Of a DNA stretch of 64,000 nucleotides, positions 213 through 28,265 are shown piece by piece. Below the pieces are notes generated by a model. The model saw nothing but the letters and a program-made list of their open reading frames with translations, had not been told where the DNA came from and did no database searches. Origin of the DNA: a virus. The stretch spans positions 1 to 64,000 of the IMG/VR virus record IMGVR_UViG_3300010397_000042, one strand, 5' to 3'. The position numbers and the translations under genes were made by a program. Positions within the stretch are counted from its first letter, which is position 1, and each line of letters begins with the position of its first letter.

Positions 213-3200
213 ATGAGCACGAAAATTCTTACCGATCTGGAGGTCGACGCACCGCTCCAGATGAACGCGAATTACCGTTTCAGTCCACTCGACCGGCGAT
301 ACATTGATGAACAGATCATTGGGATCGAGACGCTTCTCGTGCGTGCCCTCATTCGGGGCAACATGGGGACATACTACACCCTCGATCCAGATTCGACCGC
401 CGTTCCCCCTGGATACGCGGTGTGTCTTGGAAGCGCGGCAACGGGTACGGTTACCCTTGCCGACGCTGCTGCTCTTTCTTTAGCTAAGGCTCCTGTCGGC
501 GTCGCCCTTCTTGGTGCATCCCCCGGCGGACGTATCTTCGTTGTTCACGCAGGTATCATTCCCCCGTCAGTCACTGGATTCGAAGGCGGTGCCCCTGGGT
601 TCGCCCGAGTAAACGTGTCGACCGGAGCTCTCGAACGTGTCGCATCGCTCGACAGCACGGACTACGCGATCGGAACGATCGACAATGCCGGCTGGCTTCA
701 GATTGGAAACCACTCGGCAGCGGCATCCGGCGGTGGTGCGTACTCGGAGGTTACTGCACCGCTAACGAACAACGGAACCGGTCAGCTCGATAACGTGTCG
801 ACGTTGAACAGTGGTCTTGCGGTAAGCGCGATTCGATTTACTGGTGTAGCCCCCGACGTAACGGGTCTTGCAAACGGAACGGCAGGACGCCGCGTTCATG
901 TGATCGCGGTCGGCGGTCCTCTTGTTCTCGAAGAGAACAGCATCTCGAGCTCGGCTGGGAATAAGATCAAGACTGGCGCCGGAAACATCGAGATACCGCA
1001 AGGCTCTGCCGGCTGGCTTGTCTACGATGCGAGCTCGAGTCCGGGATACTGGGTCCTTTCTCAAACCGGCCCGATGGGCGGGCAGGGTGCAACCGGCGCG
1101 ATCGGCCCGACAGGACCTCAGGGTAATACCGGTGCCGTAGGACCCCAGGGCCCGACAGGACCCCAGGGCCCGACAGGACCTCAAGGTAATACTGGAGCCA
1201 CGGGGCCCCAGGGTACCACCGGAGCGACTGGACCTCAGGGTTCAACGGGACCCGCAGCGGTCTCCGGTGAAATCCCATCAGCCTATGTACACGACGCGAC
1301 GTCGCAGAACACGAATAGCAACTCGTTCTCGGATGTCACCAATGCGACAACTACGATCACTGTCGCATCCACCGTTCCGATCGTGGCGATGGCATCGATC
1401 TCTTGGAACGCTGGTGCCACCAACACGGACGCTGCCTTCCGACTTGTGATCGATGCTCAGAACGGATCCGAGCATCATGAGATCGTCGATACATCAGGTG
1501 ATGCGAGTACACTCGGCTTGATGTTTGAGTCGACCGCCCTAGCTGCTGGTACGTACACCGTCAAACTGCAGTACCGCGCCATCGCAGGCACGGTGAACTA
1601 CGAGTCGTCATCCATCACCGTTGTCGCCATGCAGGCTTGCGTGGGACCCTCTGGCGCAACCGGCATCCAAGGTGCAACGGGACCCCAGGGTGCGACTGGA
1701 GCAGTGGGCGCAACCGGAGCTGCCGGAGCGGCCGGTGCCGCTGGCGCAACCGGAGCTGTAGGGGCGACTGGCGCCGTTGGCGCAACCGGAGCTGTAGGTG
1801 CCACCGGTGCAGTGGGTAGCACCGGAGCTACGGGAGCTACCGGCATCGGGTTCGGATGGACGACGGTTCTCGACCTCGACTTCACTGCCGAGTCTTCCCA
1901 GACACTATCGACCGACACGACGTATGTGATCGGTGGGATCAACTGGACGAAGCAGAACTCGACGAACGACTCCACTGCGATGGCCCTGACCAATGGGACC
2001 GGCCTCGTCATCGTCCCGAAGTCCACGAGCGACTTCTACCAGGGTACGACGACGATGCCCCTCATCAAGACGGCCCTCAGCAACATCAGCTCGAAGCTGA
2101 TCTTGGGAAAGAAGATCCGGATCTGGTACTACTGGAGCGCCCAGAACTCCAACGCGGACTTCGACGGTGAGGTCGCCGGCATCTCCGACGGCACCTCCTC
2201 CAACTGGTACGGGTACTACCGCGGCAAGGCGGGCGCGACGAACCTCATCTCCCGCATCCAGGGGGCGAACGTCGACAAGTCGCTAGCCATCGCGTACACG
2301 GTCGGCACGGCGAACAACGTGACGATGCTGGAGATCCCCGAGCTGGGGGCTCCGTCGGTGCAGACGTTCTACGGGCAGTATTCGTCGGGATTCCCCGCGG
2401 AGTCCGCGCTGACGGCCAACCGGTACGTCAACGACCAGGCGACCAACATCGTCGGCCTCACCAACTCGAACGCGGTGCTCTTTATCGGGGCTATGCGCGC
2501 GGGCTCGGGCACCGCGTACTCGACCACGCTCGCGAGGATCAAGATCGAGGTCCTCGACGTCGACACCATGAACAGCTCCCAGGGGGCGACGGGTGCCACG
2601 GGTGCCTCCAACGTGACGGTTGCAGCGTTTTCCAGCCGCCCGTCTAACGCGGCAAACAAGGTCTTTTATCCCACGGACGGGGGCTTCAACCAGGTCGCGG
2701 ACGGCACCAACTGGTACAACGTCGTCGCGGGGGTTCCCCTGCGGGAACCGGCGGATCCGTCGGGCTACACGCAGACGAACTTCGGAACGAGTACCGTGTC
2801 GCTCACCCACGGGTGCGTGCACTTTGCCCCGCAGGTGAATGCCGGGCCCATCCTCCGGATGGCGGGCAAAACGATCAACACGCTCGCGGGGTCGTCGATC
2901 ACGTGCTGCGCCCAGATGTCGAACGTCGCCCAGTTCAACGGGCCGGGCGTCTACATGCGGGAGACGAGCACCAGCAAGGTCATGTCGCTGACCCTCCAGA
3001 CCCAGACCGCGGCATCGAAGGACCCTTGGACCCTAGGGAAAGAGATCTGGACTAGCAACGGAGCAACTCGTAGCGCTTCTGGTTTTTACTACGCGTCTGC
3101 CTTCGTCGCGAATCCCGGACCCATCCTCTGGCGTCTGGAGATCTCGGGCTCCAACGTCCTTATCCGCGTGTCGACAGACGGTGGGCAGAACTGGTTTACC

Positions 3201-3332
3201 ATCGAGACCGTTGCGCTCACGACCCCGTTCACGACCCAACCGAACGAGTTCGGAATCTGTATGCACGTCGAGAACAATACCACTCCCGCCCCAGTGGGAC
3301 AGTTCCAGTACGTGGCATTCGTGGGAGATTGA
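213..3332 (+). CDS. Collagen-repeat tail fibre protein
   Basis: A 1039-residue protein, probably the trimeric fibre or host-contact protein at the tail tip. An N-terminal globular part of about 285 residues is followed by a first Gly-X-Y block (about residues 286-350, GPTGPQG type), a globular domain (about 355-470), a second Gly-X-Y block (about 475-545, GATGAVG type), a long beta-rich region (about 548-790) and a short third collagen segment (GATGATGAS) before the C-terminal domain. Collagen-like repeats form triple helices in many phage fibres. The ATG follows the preceding TAA without a gap. Antisense open frames across the repeats are shadows. Confidence 0.9.
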   Translation: MSTKILTDLEVDAPLQMNANYRFSPLDRRYIDEQIIGIETLLVRALIRGNMGTYYTLDPDSTAVPPGYAVCLGSAATGTVTLADAAALSLAKAPVGVALLGASPGGRIFVVHAGIIPPSVTGFEGGAPGFARVNVSTGALERVASLDSTDYAIGTIDNAGWLQIGNHSAAASGGGAYSEVTAPLTNNGTGQLDNVSTLNSGLAVSAIRFTGVAPDVTGLANGTAGRRVHVIAVGGPLVLEENSISSSAGNKIKTGAGNIEIPQGSAGWLVYDASSSPGYWVLSQTGPMGGQGATGAIGPTGPQGNTGAVGPQGPTGPQGPTGPQGNTGATGPQGTTGATGPQGSTGPAAVSGEIPSAYVHDATSQNTNSNSFSDVTNATTTITVASTVPIVAMASISWNAGATNTDAAFRLVIDAQNGSEHHEIVDTSGDASTLGLMFESTALAAGTYTVKLQYRAIAGTVNYESSSITVVAMQACVGPSGATGIQGATGPQGATGAVGATGAAGAAGAAGATGAVGATGAVGATGAVGATGAVGSTGATGATGIGFGWTTVLDLDFTAESSQTLSTDTTYVIGGINWTKQNSTNDSTAMALTNGTGLVIVPKSTSDFYQGTTTMPLIKTALSNISSKLILGKKIRIWYYWSAQNSNADFDGEVAGISDGTSSNWYGYYRGKAGATNLISRIQGANVDKSLAIAYTVGTANNVTMLEIPELGAPSVQTFYGQYSSGFPAESALTANRYVNDQATNIVGLTNSNAVLFIGAMRAGSGTAYSTTLARIKIEVLDVDTMNSSQGATGATGASNVTVAAFSSRPSNAANKVFYPTDGGFNQVADGTNWYNVVAGVPLREPADPSGYTQTNFGTSTVSLTHGCVHFAPQVNAGPILRMAGKTINTLAGSSITCCAQMSNVAQFNGPGVYMRETSTSKVMSLTLQTQTAASKDPWTLGKEIWTSNGATRSASGFYYASAFVANPGPILWRLEISGSNVLIRVSTDGGQNWFTIETVALTTPFTTQPNEFGICMHVENNTTPAPVGQFQYVAFVGD

Positions 3333-7511: not shown

Positions 7512-8333
7512 TTGGACAAAGGCAAAATACATGTGGTCATCGGCGACACCCAAGTCAAAGAGGGCGTACCGACCAACCATCTTTCTTGGATAGGGCAGTA
7601 CATCGTCGACCACTTTGCGGAGTGGCAACCTGACCTCAGTATCATACATACCGGCGACCATGCCGACATGCCGTCACTCAGTTCTTACGACAAGGGTAAG
7701 AAGGAGATGGAGGGCAGGCGTTACAAGGCAGATGTCCGAGCGTCCAACAACGGCTGGGACCTACTGAACGAACCGCTCTACGACTACAACAAGAAGCGCC
7801 GTAAGCCATGGGAGCCCAAGCGATTCATCACTCTTGGGAATCACGAGTATCGAATCAACAAGGCCTGCGAAGACACCGCTCAGTTGGACGGTGTCATCTC
7901 CACGGACGACTTGAACTACAAGGAGTGGGGATGGGAAGTGATTCCATTTCTCGAGATCCTCGACTTGGACGGTATCTGGTACAGCCACTACTTCTATAAC
8001 CCGCAAACCGGCAAACCGTACGGCGGTGCAAACCTTTACACGCGTCTCCAGACCATCGGGCATTCGTTCACGATGGGTCATCAACAAGGATTGAAGGTTG
8101 CGAGTCGCGAGGTCGGTAAGACCCGGCATTGCGGTCTCGTTCTAGGATCCACGTATCTTCACGATGAGAAGTACTTGGGCCCTCAGGGAAATGCGTATTG
8201 GCGAGGAATCGTTGTCTGCCATCAGGTCGAAAACGGTGCCTACGACAGGATGGAAGTCAGTCTCGATTTCTTATGCAGACGTTATGAGGGGAAGACCCTC
8301 TCGGAGTTTATGCGAGGAGTAGTAGCAGCATGA
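7512..8333 (+). CDS. Calcineurin-like metallophosphoesterase
   Basis: A 273-residue metallophosphoesterase with the five-part metal-binding signature: GDTQ near residue 11, TGDHADM near 48, LGNHEY near 111, and two late His clusters (IGHSF-GHQ and TYLHDEK). It would hydrolyse phosphomono- or diesters with two metal ions; nucleic-acid ends or cyclic phosphates are possible. TTG start at 7512, chosen because GGAGG sits 5 bp upstream. It has its own promoter and begins a three-gene unit with the trypsin-like lipoprotein. Confidence 0.8.
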   Translation: MDKGKIHVVIGDTQVKEGVPTNHLSWIGQYIVDHFAEWQPDLSIIHTGDHADMPSLSSYDKGKKEMEGRRYKADVRASNNGWDLLNEPLYDYNKKRRKPWEPKRFITLGNHEYRINKACEDTAQLDGVISTDDLNYKEWGWEVIPFLEILDLDGIWYSHYFYNPQTGKPYGGANLYTRLQTIGHSFTMGHQQGLKVASREVGKTRHCGLVLGSTYLHDEKYLGPQGNAYWRGIVVCHQVENGAYDRMEVSLDFLCRRYEGKTLSEFMRGVVAA

Positions 8334-9040
8334 AGTTAGGTCTTATCTTTGCGTTCGTTCTTTCTTTGGCAGCATGTGTCACGCCATTAGACGTGGTTCC
8401 ACCGTCCGTTTCAAAGGCTCCTGTCTCGAAGGAGCAATCGGCTTTCAGTCTCAGATCAAAGACGGTAGCTCTGGTCCGGGGCACCGATGATGGTCCGGCA
8501 CCTTTTTGCACCGGGGTCTGGGTTACGCCGAGCACATTCCTGACCGCGCAGCACTGCGTCGACGAAGATAAGATGGGAGGGGTGTTCGTTTACACCTCCG
8601 AGAGTGACGTCTTCGGAAAGGGCGATCCTCATCCGAAGGCCAACATTCAAGTGCGACTAGCTTCACTAAAGAAGGTCGATGCGATTCACGACCTGGCGCT
8701 GCTGCATGCTCCCGATCCTCCCGAACAACACGGCATCGTCGAGACGGTGGCTAGCCGAGTTACCGCCGGTCAATTCGTTCAGACCATGGGGCACTCGATC
8801 GGACTCTGGTACAGCTACTCAAGCGGTGACGTAAGCGCGGTCCGATGGATCGATGCTGGTGACGGCAGCATGATGTACGTCCAGACCACCGTTCCAACCA
8901 GTCCGGGTAACAGCGGTGGTGGACTCTTCAACGAGAACCTCGAGCTCGTCGGGCTCTGTCACGGCACGGTGAAGCACGGTCAGAACATCAGCTTCTACGT
9001 TCACGCGCAGCACATCGCCGAGTTCTTGAAGGATAAATGA
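8330..9040 (+). CDS. Trypsin-like serine protease lipoprotein
   Basis: A 236-residue protein with a lipoprotein signal (LSLAAC, Cys16) and a complete S1-type triad: His75 in TAQHC, Asp121 in HDLALL, Ser195 in SPGNSGGG. Probably lipid-anchored in the outer or inner membrane and active outside the cytoplasm. The start overlaps the phosphoesterase stop. No PDZ domain follows, so it is not HtrA-like in full. Such exported proteases could act in lysis, superinfection exclusion or as lysogenic conversion factors; which one is not shown by sequence. Confidence 0.85.
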   Translation: MKLGLIFAFVLSLAACVTPLDVVPPSVSKAPVSKEQSAFSLRSKTVALVRGTDDGPAPFCTGVWVTPSTFLTAQHCVDEDKMGGVFVYTSESDVFGKGDPHPKANIQVRLASLKKVDAIHDLALLHAPDPPEQHGIVETVASRVTAGQFVQTMGHSIGLWYSYSSGDVSAVRWIDAGDGSMMYVQTTVPTSPGNSGGGLFNENLELVGLCHGTVKHGQNISFYVHAQHIAEFLKDK

Positions 9041-12728: not shown

Positions 12729-12916
12729 CGGGGGATGATCCTCCCTTTGGTGATGTTCATCTTCTCGTCGAGCTCGAACTCGAGCGATGCGTACTCTCCG
12801 TACTCGAACCACTTCTCATCTTCTTCCTCGGACATGCCGAAGTGGTCGATAACCTCGTTCCACATGTCCGGGTCTTTGATGTCCTCGAGTACAACCTTGA
12901 TCGTCTTCTTCTTCAT
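12725..12916 (-). CDS. Small acidic protein (63 aa)
   Basis: Starts MKKKTIKVVLEDIKD, then strongly acidic. The small, coupled gene immediately downstream of the integrase could be a modulator, but nothing in the sequence shows it. Confidence 0.6.
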   Translation of the reverse strand: MKKKTIKVVLEDIKDPDMWNEVIDHFGMSEEEDEKWFEYGEYASLEFELDEKMNITKGRIIPR

Positions 12917-14154
12917 ACAGCCCTCAAGTGCCTCGGCTTAGGTACCTTCTCGAGCACCGCTTCAATCAACGGGGAGACGTCCGAGGCCTTCCTCTTCCCG
13001 TAGACCTGTTTCAACATTCGATCGTCTGAGTGTCCCATCAGCGGGTACGCAAGCTCGTAGGGGACGCCTGCCTGCATCAGCCATTGGGCAAATGTGCGGC
13101 GTAGGTCGGTTGGGCAGAAAGGCTCGAACACCGGAACCTTCTTGCACTCGGGACACTTCGGATCCCGACATGGCGTTCCCATGGTCTGAGAGGTGCCCCG
13201 AACCAAGCTGTTACCGCTCCTCCACCAGAGATTCTTGCTCTGCTCGCAGTCCTTGCACATCGACAGGTAAGCGCAGGCGATCAGGATGTCGCGTCTTACG
13301 TTGCCCCACGCGGCGAAGAGTGAGTCGTTCTTCCCGTCGGCGTTCCGCATGGCCCGCTCAAACAGGTGACGGCGATCGCTGGGGACGATGAACGTTCGAT
13401 CTCGGAGCTCGCGCTTCGTACCTCGGATGTGAACCTCGAACGTCTCCATGTTCATCTCAGATCGCTTGGAGTGCGCCACCTCGCTCGGGTAGGTCGATCC
13501 GGTCGAGACGATGAAGTCCAAGACACCGCCCTTCGCTGCCGATCGGTTCGCGTACCACCATCGCATAAACCGGTCGTACTCCTCTCGAGTCAGCCACCGT
13601 TCTCTAGGTACATAGAGAGCCTGGAAGTCTTCCGGCTTCATCTCGGTGACGGAGCCGCAACTCACTCCGTCCCGCTTCGCCATCTTCATCGCCATACTCA
13701 GGGCGGTGAGCTCCTTCCCGATGGTGTTGCCTTTGGTTCCCTCGTCGGTTCGCTGCTGAATGTACTGTCGTATCGTTTCTGGAGTGATCCCAGATAGGAG
13801 TAGATTCGGTCCCAATACACGGACAAGGACACCGCTCTTTTTCTCGTAGAACTTGATCGTGTCTTCCGCGAGCTTCTTTCGGGAGGGGTCATTGTTCTTA
13901 CGATTGCTCTTCAACCATTCGATCCGGTTGAGGAGAGCGGTGTTGAGGGTGCGCTCCTTTTTCTCGGAGCCGTCCACAGGATTCTTTCGGACCCGCTCGA
14001 GGTAGACGCGGTGGGCGGCGACATCGTCGCGCTGTCCGGTGCTCTCTCGGATGTGCCGTCCCCCCTTCGGATTCGGGAGCTGCATCCACCAGATCGTCGA
14101 GCCCGGGTACTTGAAGAGCTCTGGGTAGCGCTGATGCCGGATGTAGCCTGACAT
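12913..14154 (-). CDS. int: Tyrosine recombinase (integrase) with altered active site and zinc insert
   Basis: A 413-residue integrase. N-terminal arm-binding region (MSGYIRHQRYPELFKYPGST), SAM-like core, then the catalytic domain. Box I reads TGSTYPSEVAHSKRSEMN, where the usual TGxRxSE Arg is absent. The beta-hairpin Lys is present (RGTKRELRDRTF), box II reads LRRTFAQW with Arg but not the usual HxLR His, and MGHSDDRMLKQVYGK supplies box III His and the nucleophile Tyr. Between the hairpin and box II is an insert with two Cys clusters (CKDC, CRDPKCPEC), a probable zinc finger. ATG at 14154 follows AAGGAG. Recombines attP and attB if still active. Confidence 0.75.
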   Translation of the reverse strand: MSGYIRHQRYPELFKYPGSTIWWMQLPNPKGGRHIRESTGQRDDVAAHRVYLERVRKNPVDGSEKKERTLNTALLNRIEWLKSNRKNNDPSRKKLAEDTIKFYEKKSGVLVRVLGPNLLLSGITPETIRQYIQQRTDEGTKGNTIGKELTALSMAMKMAKRDGVSCGSVTEMKPEDFQALYVPRERWLTREEYDRFMRWWYANRSAAKGGVLDFIVSTGSTYPSEVAHSKRSEMNMETFEVHIRGTKRELRDRTFIVPSDRRHLFERAMRNADGKNDSLFAAWGNVRRDILIACAYLSMCKDCEQSKNLWWRSGNSLVRGTSQTMGTPCRDPKCPECKKVPVFEPFCPTDLRRTFAQWLMQAGVPYELAYPLMGHSDDRMLKQVYGKRKASDVSPLIEAVLEKVPKPRHLRAV

Positions 14155-14306
14155 GTTCGAGACTCCTTCCACTGTTCGAAGGCCTCACGTGAAACGCGAA
14201 TGGACCTCCCCGACACGAGGCGTGTGCACTCGCGAGCGATCTCATACGCGCGCGTCAAGCTAACGCAAAGCTCTTTCGAGATATCCTTTGCAGTCAAGTA
14301 CTGCAT
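13911..14306 (-). CDS. xis: Excisionase-like HTH protein, heavily overlapping the integrase
   Basis: The first ~50 residues (MQYLTAKDISKELCVSLTRAY...SGRSIRVSREAFEQWKES) form a typical MerR/excisionase HTH that binds bent DNA at att sites. The frame then continues for ~80 Ser/Arg-rich low-complexity residues inside the integrase gene. This tail is probably a read-on shadow, or the real product is a shift into the integrase frame at AAGGAGT near 14166. The HTH part is solid; the 3' limit is not. Confidence 0.55.
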   Translation of the reverse strand: MQYLTAKDISKELCVSLTRAYEIARECTRLVSGRSIRVSREAFEQWKESRTCQATSGISATQSSSSTRARRSGGCSSRIRRGDGTSERAPDSATMSPPTASTSSGSERILWTAPRKRSAPSTPLSSTGSNG

Positions 14307-14395: not shown

Positions 14396-14490
14396 GGTGA
14401 TTCGGCAGGACTCGAACCTGCACCTGGTGTTGCGTCTGCCAATTGCGCGCGGATCTCGTTAGCAAGACGAGTCCGTCACCCACGAATCAC
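14396..14490 (-). tRNA. tRNA-like element with abnormal arm order
   Basis: Perfect 8-bp acceptor GTGATTCG/CGAATCAC and a perfect T-arm GCAGG-TTCGAGT-CCTGC. The interior is odd: a 5-bp stem with 7-nt loop (CTCGT-CTTGCTA-ACGAG) precedes a D-arm-like GCG-CAATTGGCAGA-CGC, and position 37 of the loop would be T. No CCA is encoded. It could be a class II tRNA with a shrunken D-arm and long variable arm, or a decayed tRNA. Amino-acid identity is not assigned. Confidence 0.4.
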
Positions 14491-14566: not shown

Positions 14567-14639
14567 GGACAGATCGCGGACTCGAACCGCTGCCGAAGGA
14601 GGGCGACTCCCCGTTCAGAACCCCTCTGATCAATCTGTC
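14567..14639 (-). tRNA. tRNA-like element with a 7-bp acceptor and T-arm
   Basis: Acceptor GACAGAT/ATCTGTC is perfect and the T-arm is GCGG-TTCGAGT-CCGC. A D-arm-like TCAGA/TCTGA stem and a GGGGA/TCCTT stem enclosing GTCGCCC fill the middle. The loop nucleotide at 37 would be C and no CCA is encoded, so a functional identity (nominal anticodon CGC) is doubtful. Confidence 0.4.
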
Positions 14640-14701
14640 AAAAAGGGGCGACCTCTCCGTCACCCTCCACCACGCCAATCAAGTACCATTACCCAATTAG
14701 C

Positions 14702-15044
14702 GGTGGACAAGTCGGGAATCGAACCCGAGTCCGAAAAACATCCTCATTCCCTTCATTCACGTGCGTAGCCTCTGTTGTAGCCAGAGGCAGCATTCATGAC
14801 GGTCTACGTCGGTGTCATGCAGACGACCCTGAAACAACCACGACTCGGGTCATCCGTGGCGATTGCCCTATAGGTTTACCCTGGAGCGATACTAGGGCGA
14901 TATGTGCTCCAGAGTCCTCACTCAGGCCGCAGCCTGGAGCTCGGGGATTGCGTTATCGTTCGCAGTTACGTTTCCCGATTGAAGAGGTCGGGGCTCTTGC
15001 ACGCAGAGTCTGATTCCATTCTCCGTCGAAACCATTGCTTGCCC
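14702..15044 (-). ncRNA. ssrA: tmRNA (transfer-messenger RNA)
   Basis: The 5' end GGGCAAGCAATGGTTTCGAC carries the conserved GGTTTCGACGG segment, and the 3' end has TTTTTCGGACTCGGG and a TTCGATT T-loop ending in GTCCACC. The termini pair GGGCAAG with CTTGTCC (7 bp, one G-U). The tag frame starts at a GCG codon at 14963 after CGTAACT and reads ANDNAIPELQAAA then TGA at 14922-14924. Length is about 343 nt before CCA completion (final A not encoded). It rescues stalled ribosomes and tags nascent proteins for proteolysis. Phage-encoded tmRNA is known but uncommon. Confidence 0.9.
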
Positions 15045-15150: not shown

Positions 15151-15612
15151 TCAAAATGGAATGTCGTCGTCGCTCACATCACTCGTGAAATCATCATCTA
15201 CAGACTCAGGTTCCGGATTTGTATTTCGTCGCGGTGCAGCAGCCTTCTTAGACTCCTTAGCCTCGCTCTCTCCTCCACCTCGCTTTCCGCCACACAAGAG
15301 AACTTGGTTGGCATTGATCTCTGTTCGGTACCTCTTCTCGCCATCCTTCTCGTAACTCGAGGTACGTAGGCCTCCTTTTACGAAAATGCGATCCCCCTTA
15401 TTGAGGATCTTGGACAGCCCTTCCGCTCGCTTTCCCCAAAGCGTTACAGAGTGCCATTCAGTGCGCTCTTGACGCGTGTTCTCCCTGTCCAGATACGACT
15501 CGGTCGTCGCGAGTCGCAGCTTCAGAATCGCCTGACCGCCACTCGTCACCCGCAACTCAGGGTCTGCTCCGAGGTTCCCCAACAGATTTACTTCGTTTAG
15601 CCCTTCTGCCAT
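15151..15612 (-). CDS. ssb: Single-stranded DNA-binding protein
   Basis: A 153-residue SSB: OB-fold signature (NLLGNLGADPELR, FLT-like W-HSVTLWGKRAE), flexible Gly/Glu-rich linker and an acidic tip DDDIPF that recruits partner proteins. Leader of about 15 nt with AAAGGAAAC ribosome site. It lies downstream of the Sak4-type ATPase, and Sak4 annealases are known to need SSB. Confidence 0.92.
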   Translation of the reverse strand: MAEGLNEVNLLGNLGADPELRVTSGGQAILKLRLATTESYLDRENTRQERTEWHSVTLWGKRAEGLSKILNKGDRIFVKGGLRTSSYEKDGEKRYRTEINANQVLLCGGKRGGGESEAKESKKAAAPRRNTNPEPESVDDDFTSDVSDDDIPF

Positions 15613-27176: not shown

Positions 27177-27191
27177 CTGAGTGAGGTGACA

Positions 27192-28265
27192 ATGTCAGAA
27201 TTCAAGATTCAAGTCGTGCGTCTGGGCAAGATCGGGAAGCATCCAAATGCAGATACTCTGAGTATTACTCAGGTATTGGGAAACTACCCGGTCGTCCTGA
27301 AGTCAGGGACGTTCCAACCAGGCGATCTCGCGGTTCACATTCCACCGGATTCGCTCGTACCGGTGGACCATCCGGCTTTCAGCTTCTTAGCTAATAAGGC
27401 GACTAATGGGTTCTGTCGGATTCGCTTCAGTAAGATCCGCAACGTACCGAGTTACGGATTCCTGGTTCCGCTGTCGGATGTGACTTTTCCCGAGCAGAGC
27501 GGACGAGATCTATACGGGCAGGAAATCTACGAAGGCATGGATGTTCAGGAGCTTCTGGGCGTTCAGAAGTACGAACCTGGCCCCTGCTACCAGCTGGGCG
27601 GCGAGATCGCTGGTGAGCACATCAGCCTTCCGCAAGGCGGTGTTGTTCCTCACTACGACATCTTTGGACTCCGCAAGTACGAGCGGCTCTTCGAGGATGG
27701 CGAGCGAGTTATCGTCACCGAGAAGATTCATGGTTCGAACGGTCGGTGGATCTTCCTGAATGACGAGCTCTACTGCGGGTCTCGTACCCGGTTCCGTCGC
27801 GACTCGGTTTGGAATCGCATGGCGGAGAAGTACGACCTCAAGGCGACCCTGGAGATGGTCCCGGGGATTGTTCTTTACGGTGAAGTCTATGGTAGCAAGA
27901 TCCAAGATCTGACCTACGGCATCGACGATCAGCGCGTTGTGTTCTTCGACATCTACGACACGCGCACCGGTACTTGGTGGGACTCCGATCGGTTCCGCAT
28001 CTTCTGTCGCGCGTTCAATCTGCCAGCGGTACCGGTTCTGTACGACGGTCCATTCGAGCTCGACAGGATGTACGAGTACGCCGAAGGCGGCTCGATTCTT
28101 CACATGGACAATTACGCAGCGCGAAAGCCCGGCTGCGCAGGCAACTTCCACGTGCGAGAGGGCATTGTCGTCAGGCCTGCCGAGGAGCGGTGGGATCAGC
28201 GATTGGGACGCGTGTTCTTGAAGCTTCCCGGGGAAGGTTACCTCCTCCGAAAGCAAGCAGCGTGA
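27192..28265 (+). CDS. DraRnl-type ATP-dependent RNA ligase
   Basis: A 357-residue ligase with an N-terminal OB-like domain (VVRLGKIGKHPNADTL...RNVPSYGFLVPL) and a nucleotidyltransferase core with motif I TEKIHGSNG (adenylated Lys near residue 178) and late motifs (REGIVVRP, FLKLPGEGYL). The domain order matches the Deinococcus DraRnl family, which seals 3'-OH/5'-P breaks in RNA. ATG at 27192 preferred over GTG at 27186. Could repair tRNAs cut by host defence nucleases. Confidence 0.85.
   Translation: MSEFKIQVVRLGKIGKHPNADTLSITQVLGNYPVVLKSGTFQPGDLAVHIPPDSLVPVDHPAFSFLANKATNGFCRIRFSKIRNVPSYGFLVPLSDVTFPEQSGRDLYGQEIYEGMDVQELLGVQKYEPGPCYQLGGEIAGEHISLPQGGVVPHYDIFGLRKYERLFEDGERVIVTEKIHGSNGRWIFLNDELYCGSRTRFRRDSVWNRMAEKYDLKATLEMVPGIVLYGEVYGSKIQDLTYGIDDQRVVFFDIYDTRTGTWWDSDRFRIFCRAFNLPAVPVLYDGPFELDRMYEYAEGGSILHMDNYAARKPGCAGNFHVREGIVVRPAEERWDQRLGRVFLKLPGEGYLLRKQAA

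What the first reader, a model, noticed from the sequence alone, without database searches (positions are those of the whole stretch)
14702..15044. Phage-encoded tmRNA with a tag ending LQAAA
Both tRNA-like ends pair, the GGTTTCGACGG segment is present and the internal frame reads ANDNAIPELQAAA. The tag opens like host tags (AND) but its C-terminus differs from the familiar LAA form, so tagged proteins may go to a different protease or be handled differently. It lies next to two odd tRNA-like elements.
Basis: partly seen in the sequence, partly recalled or inferred. Interest (0 to 1): 0.75.

Follow-up and report, generated by a model that had tools for sequence, protein, structure and literature searches.

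The report
Ordinary phage tmRNA, slightly variant tag
A bacterial virus carries its own complete tmRNA, the RNA that frees stuck ribosomes and adds a destruction tag to unfinished proteins; such viral tmRNAs are already known, the tag's AAA ending is as common in bacteria as in viruses, and the only mildly unusual feature is a polar residue just before the final alanines.

Summary
Window 14702-15044, minus strand, is a one-piece tmRNA (ARAGORN; Rfam RF00023, 103.5 bits, E 2.4e-39) with tag ANDNAIPELQAAA. It has a perfect acceptor stem with the alanine-specific G3:U70 pair, a T-arm and pseudoknot PK1. It lies in an 89-kb virus record between a phage ssb gene and an integrase gene. The record has no SmpB, so the RNA must use the host's. 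The closest tmRNAs found are all viral; two sit in large tRNA arrays, so the two tRNA-like elements downstream may be remnants of such an array.

The inference drawn from "LQAAA" is not supported. Tags ending AAA were equally frequent in sampled bacterial and viral one-piece tmRNAs (13/148 and 8/93 unique tags, p = 1.0). The terminal Ala-Ala that matters most to ClpXP is kept, and poly-alanine tails are themselves ClpXP degrons. A ClpXP-type fate is the default.

One broader pattern emerged. A polar residue (mostly K, R or Q) just before the terminal alanines occurs in 21/93 viral but 4/148 bacterial tags (p = 1e-6; exploratory), also after clustering. The window's tag is of this class. Whether it alters degradation is unknown. 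The host was not identified.

The parts
14702..15044 (-). tmRNA gene (one-piece), 343 nt; CC of the CCA end encoded, final A not
   Evidence: ARAGORN; RF00023 103.5 bits, E 2.4e-39
14922..14963 (-). tag reading frame ANDNAIPELQAAA plus TGA stop (resume codon GCG)
   Evidence: ARAGORN coding part 82-123 of the gene; preceded by the conserved TAACTGC region
14705..14711 (-). 3' strand of the acceptor stem (CTTGTCC), pairing with 15038-15044 (GGGCAAG) and including the G3:U70 pair
   Evidence: 7 of 7 pairs; G3:U70 in the window and all 123 viral tmRNAs compared, with compensatory changes at pairs 4-7
14974..14998 (-). pseudoknot PK1: AAGAG/CTCTT interleaved with CCCGA/TCGGG
   Evidence: 19 of 500 shuffles reach it, but relatives L616, L592, L128 and L162 keep it with different base pairs
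14646..14665 (-). terminator-like hairpin followed by CTTTTT, after the tmRNA
   Evidence: about the number expected in shuffles, so weak
14567..14639 (-). tRNA-like element, tRNA-Ala(CGC)-like, just under ARAGORN's default threshold
14396..14490 (-). rearranged tRNA-like element: 7-bp acceptor stem, T-arm, and a tRNA-Leu-like D-arm displaced by about 32 nt
12913..14172 (-). integrase gene (tyrosine recombinase family) downstream of the tmRNA
   Evidence: PHROG 1 E 4.2e-27; PF00589 E 2.8e-7
15151..15612 (-). phage single-strand DNA-binding protein gene upstream of the tmRNA
   Evidence: PHROG 44 E 3.8e-41; PF00436

Best explanation
This is a phage-encoded one-piece tmRNA that works like bacterial tmRNA together with the host's SmpB, alanyl-tRNA synthetase and CCA-adding enzyme. 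During infection or lysogeny it would supplement or replace host ssrA: enter stalled ribosomes, donate alanine, resume on its own frame and append (A)ANDNAIPELQAAA. The tagged protein most likely still goes to ClpXP-type proteases, because the terminal Ala-Ala is kept. Shown here: the gene, its structure, the tag frame, its place among phage genes, and the absence of SmpB from the record. Inferred: expression (probably read-through from the ssb operon, then processing), charging, tagging and proteolysis.
For: Full-length covariance match and tag frame. Intact acceptor stem with G3:U70, T-stem, and PK1 conserved through compensatory changes in viral relatives. Phage genes on both sides. The nine nearest tmRNAs are viral, and L616 and L128 keep theirs inside tRNA arrays, which fits lasting viral residence. 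No SmpB in the record while ten control bacteria are found. AAA endings are common in bacterial tags. Ala-Ala is the main ClpXP determinant and alanine tails are degrons (PMC7652416; PMC8012679).
Against: No expression data. No sigma-70-like promoter nearby. PK2-PK4 were not established, and posterior values in the middle of the alignment are low. CCA is not fully encoded. The nearest phages by SSB and TerL lack a tmRNA in the records held.
Confidence: 0.85

Rival explanations
1. The gene is a host ssrA picked up because the phage integrates at ssrA (attachment-site capture); it has no function for the phage.
For: An integrase gene starts about 530 bp beyond the tmRNA's 3' end. Integration at ssrA is common for islands and prophages (PMC12595487; PMC9004378).
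Against: The gene is complete rather than a 3' fragment, two tRNA-like elements lie between it and the integrase gene, and its nearest relatives are other viral tmRNAs rather than any sampled bacterium.
Confidence: 0.08
2. The tag directs proteins away from ClpXP, to another protease or to stability, so that the phage rescues ribosomes while sparing tagged proteins.
For: A polar residue before the terminal alanines is enriched in viral tags (21/93 against 4/148; holds after clustering). Mycoplasma shows that such a specificity switch can evolve (Gur and Sauer 2008, cited in PMC8138137).
Against: Terminal Ala-Ala is kept; antepenultimate changes raise KM only modestly (PMC7652416); bacterial tags such as ANDEHYAPMRAAA have the same form.
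Confidence: 0.12
3. It is an inhibitory decoy that titrates SmpB, like the reduced tmRNA of mycobacteriophage DS6A.
For: DS6A carries a tRNA-like-domain-only tmRNA that is reported to inhibit tmRNA (PMC4131195; PMC11915505).
Against: This RNA is full length, with a conserved resume region, an open tag frame and a stop.
Confidence: 0.04

Closest known systems
Bacterial one-piece tmRNA (ssrA), Rfam RF00023
   Same: Full-length match, tRNA-like ends with G3:U70, resume region, tag frame with stop, PK1
   Different: Carried by a phage without SmpB; polar Q directly before the terminal alanines, rare in the bacterial sample (4/148)
Phage tmRNAs: mycobacteriophages Bxz1, Cali, Wildcat, Bacillus phage G (PMC4131195); 402 of 18,146 phage genomes (PMC9004378)
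   Same: Complete tmRNA in a phage genome that relies on host SmpB
   Different: Different phage lineage with no close relative in the phage collection; different tag; next to an integrase gene
Viral tmRNAs L616 (ANDNATAYGLAA), L073 (ANDNAVQAAA), L064 (ANDNITPQKAAA), L592 (ANDNSIALPVQKAA)
   Same: Nearest in sequence; ANDN opening; three of the four share a polar residue before the terminal alanines
   Different: Other viruses, with no shared protein-coding synteny found in the loci held; L616 sits in an array of 23 tRNAs
Acidobacteriota genome G122: host tmRNA L295 and prophage tmRNA L418
   Same: Phage-borne second tmRNA with a tag ending AAA (AKNVFTFVRSFFTPHSEQEWAPVALPAAA), among phage genes
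   Different: Much longer tag; its host's own tag is known (ANDNFELALAA)

Membership tests
tmRNA, one-piece (RF00023) | Full-length covariance match above the curated cut-off | tested here: met
   103.5 bits against 47, model 1-374
tmRNA, one-piece (RF00023) | tRNA-like domain: 7-bp acceptor stem with G3:U70, T-arm, GGNTTCGAC segment | tested here: met
tmRNA, one-piece (RF00023) | Tag reading frame with Ala resume codon and a stop | tested here: met
   GCG...TGA, ANDNAIPELQAAA
tmRNA, one-piece (RF00023) | Pseudoknot PK1 upstream of the resume codon | tested here: met
   interleaved 5-bp helices, compensatory changes in relatives
tmRNA, one-piece (RF00023) | Pseudoknots PK2-PK4 | tested here: inconclusive
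   stems of the model are partly filled, with low posterior values; not examined further
tmRNA, one-piece (RF00023) | SmpB partner | not testable with these tools
   No SmpB in the phage record; host unknown
tmRNA, one-piece (RF00023) | Charged with alanine and active in trans-translation | not testable with these tools
   needs an experiment
Permuted two-piece tmRNA (RF04321) | Permuted order above the family cut-off | tested here: not met
   28.5 bits against 47
Tag-less tRNA-like-domain inhibitor (phage DS6A type) | Little more than the tRNA-like domain, no tag frame | tested here: not met
   343 nt with a tag frame
ssrA-type ClpXP degron | C-terminal Ala-Ala | tested here: met
   tag ends AAA; importance of Ala-Ala from PMC7652416
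ssrA-type ClpXP degron | Degraded by ClpXP | not testable with these tools
   needs a degradation assay

The most novel reading that the evidence does not exclude
Viral tmRNAs as a class carry modified degrons: a polar (mostly Lys, Arg or Gln) residue replaces the leucine-type residue before the terminal alanines, so that phage-directed trans-translation recycles ribosomes while tagged proteins are degraded more slowly or through another adaptor or protease. This tag (LQ-AAA) would be one example.
Probability: 0.15. Interest if true: 0.6.

Novelty: new member of a known kind. Interest (0 to 1): 0.3.

Why it matters
The gene adds one more intact phage tmRNA, from a divergent myovirus that carries an integrase. 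The statistic found on the way (polar residue before the terminal alanines in 23% of viral but 3% of bacterial unique one-piece tags) is a cheap, testable lead on whether phages retune the fate of tagged proteins. Without that, the finding is routine annotation.

Tried and rejected
Nearest phages: no DNA match to the tmRNA region in 50,697 phage records; no relative of the integrase in phages or IMG/VR; no tail-sheath match; TerL and RNR relatives are at 40% identity or less and give no host. Relatives by SSB and TerL lack a tmRNA in their records. Host identification through resemblance to bacterial tmRNAs failed, because the nearest sequences are viral. A permissive whole-window tRNA search gave only noise. 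The idea that AAA endings are virus-specific was rejected by the survey. The two-piece and tag-less forms were rejected. My first blast rankings were made before the last viral loci were decoded; one search supersedes them, with L616 closest.

Full report
WHAT IS THERE. The window lies in an 89,011-base virus record. ARAGORN reports one tmRNA, 14702-15044 on the minus strand, tag ANDNAIPELQAAA. Rfam RF00023 matches the same place over the full model at 103.5 bits, E 2.4e-39. The permuted model reaches only 28.5 bits, so this is the one-piece form. The acceptor stem GGGCAAG/CTTGTCC pairs at all seven positions, with the G3:U70 pair that marks alanine acceptors (established knowledge). The T-stem pairs at five of five. 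In the window sequence plus 123 viral one-piece tmRNAs, G3:U70 was present in all 124, while acceptor pairs 4-7 changed with compensation. Upstream of the tag are two interleaved 5-bp helices (AAGAG/CTCTT, CCCGA/TCGGG), with the position and form of PK1. Taken alone this is modest evidence (19 of 500 shuffles reach it), but L616, L592, L128 and L162 keep it with different pairs. PK2-PK4 were not established: the model's alignment there has low posterior values. After the discriminator A the DNA reads CCG, so the terminal CCA must be completed by the host.

SETTING. The genes on both sides are phage genes: ssb (15151-15612) upstream and an integrase (12913-14172) downstream, and in the rest of the record an exonuclease, a Sak4-like protein, DNA polymerase, helicases, a ribonucleotide reductase, terminase, portal, head protein, tail sheath and others. 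No SmpB is encoded in the record, whereas the same search rings in ten control genomes, all bacteria. No sigma-70-like promoter lies close by. One terminator-like hairpin follows the tmRNA, a number that shuffles also reach. Transcription from the ssb operon with processing is therefore an inference.

RELATIVES. The closest tmRNA among about 325 compared is L616 (ANDNATAYGLAA, 102-kb viral contig), followed by L073, L064 and L592; the nine nearest are all viral. In L616 and L128 the tmRNA sits among 23 and 17 tRNAs. Here two tRNA-like elements lie downstream on the same strand. One is recognised as tRNA-Ala(CGC) just under the default threshold. The other has a tRNA-Leu-like D-arm displaced by about 32 nt. 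Remnants of a tRNA array is the simplest reading, not proven. Apart from the tmRNA itself, no protein-coding neighbour is shared with the L616, L592, L073, L064 or L128 loci. The phage's nearest relatives by SSB and TerL have no tmRNA in the records held. The host was not found.

IS THE TAG UNUSUAL? I decoded tags from one-piece tmRNAs of Acidobacteriota, SAR324, Pseudomonadota, Bacillota, Bacteroidota and Actinomycetota genomes and from viral contigs found by patterns that do not look at the tag. Loci of genomes first chosen by an -AAA pattern, and the G122 prophage copy, were left out of the bacterial set. The result was 148 unique bacterial and 93 unique viral tags. AAA endings: 13/148 and 8/93, no difference (p = 1.0). 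Bacterial examples include ANDNYALAAA, ADDYALAAA and ANDEHYAPMRAAA. A polar residue directly before the terminal alanine run: 4/148 bacterial, 21/93 viral (odds ratio 10.5, p = 1.2e-6). After single-linkage clustering by sequence similarity at five thresholds the contrast stayed (for example 19/64 against 2/84 clusters, p = 2e-6). The window tag, LQ-AAA, belongs to this class; the window itself was not counted in the test. Caveats: hosts are not matched; six phyla are sampled, with high-scoring members over-represented; the viral set may include host ssrA genes flanking prophages, which would dilute the contrast; and the split was chosen after seeing the tags, so the p-values are exploratory.

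MEANING. In E. [quoted passage not shown] changing the antepenultimate Leu raises KM only modestly; alanine tails are degrons too (PMC7652416; PMC8012679). The tag keeps Ala-Ala, so the default prediction is ordinary degradation. A different fate is possible, as Mycoplasma shows (Gur and Sauer 2008, cited in PMC8138137), but nothing here requires it.

KNOWN OR NEW. Phage tmRNAs are established: 402 of 18,146 genomes in one survey (PMC9004378), listed phages in PMC4131195, and viruses included in the genome sets of PMC11915505. I found no published report of the polar-residue contrast in the papers held, but that search was limited. Verdict: a genuine, complete, ordinary phage tmRNA; a new member of a known kind.

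Noticed in passing
window 14396-14490 (-): tRNA-like element with a perfect 7-bp acceptor stem and T-arm, but an anticodon-like hairpin (loop CTTGCTA) placed before a tRNA-Leu-like D-arm; its order does not fit a normal cloverleaf and is unexplained.
   Followed up: partly
window 14567-14639 (-): Marginal tRNA-Ala(CGC)-like element, found only with ARAGORN's threshold lowered to 95%.
   Followed up: partly
viral loci (e.g. L592, L162, L160, L182, L195): Viral tmRNA tags often carry K, R, Q, E or N directly before the terminal alanines (21/93 unique tags), rare in the bacterial sample (4/148).
   Followed up: partly
L069 and L071 (GADNKCPDFIPDWVMDEVLVAV), L155 (ANDMDASVTCPDFIPDWVMEEAAVLV): Related viral tmRNAs with long tags that do not end in Ala-Ala at all.
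   Followed up: no
L418:9643-9988 (G122:C1:1443642-1443987): An Acidobacteriota chromosome with its own tmRNA (tag ANDNFELALAA, L295) also holds a second tmRNA among phage genes with tag AKNVFTFVRSFFTPHSEQEWAPVALPAAA: a natural host-prophage pair for testing.
   Followed up: partly
L086 (393-kb viral contig): Two tRNAs with anticodon TCA (called tRNA-SeC) beside a tmRNA with tag ANDNAIRAAA; possibly a phage that reads UGA as an amino acid.
   Followed up: no
window 27186-28265 (+): RNA ligase with a PHA02142-type OB-fold domain; a possible tRNA or tmRNA repair enzyme.
   Followed up: no
window 8330-9040 (+): Trypsin-like serine protease encoded by the phage, in the same strand run as the endolysin and metallophosphoesterase genes.
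   Followed up: no
window 12913-14172 (-): Divergent integrase-family protein without detectable relatives in the phage collection or in the IMG/VR scan.
   Followed up: partly
window 213-3332 (+): 1039-aa tail-fibre protein matching collagen-like minor tail and tail-fibre families.
   Followed up: no
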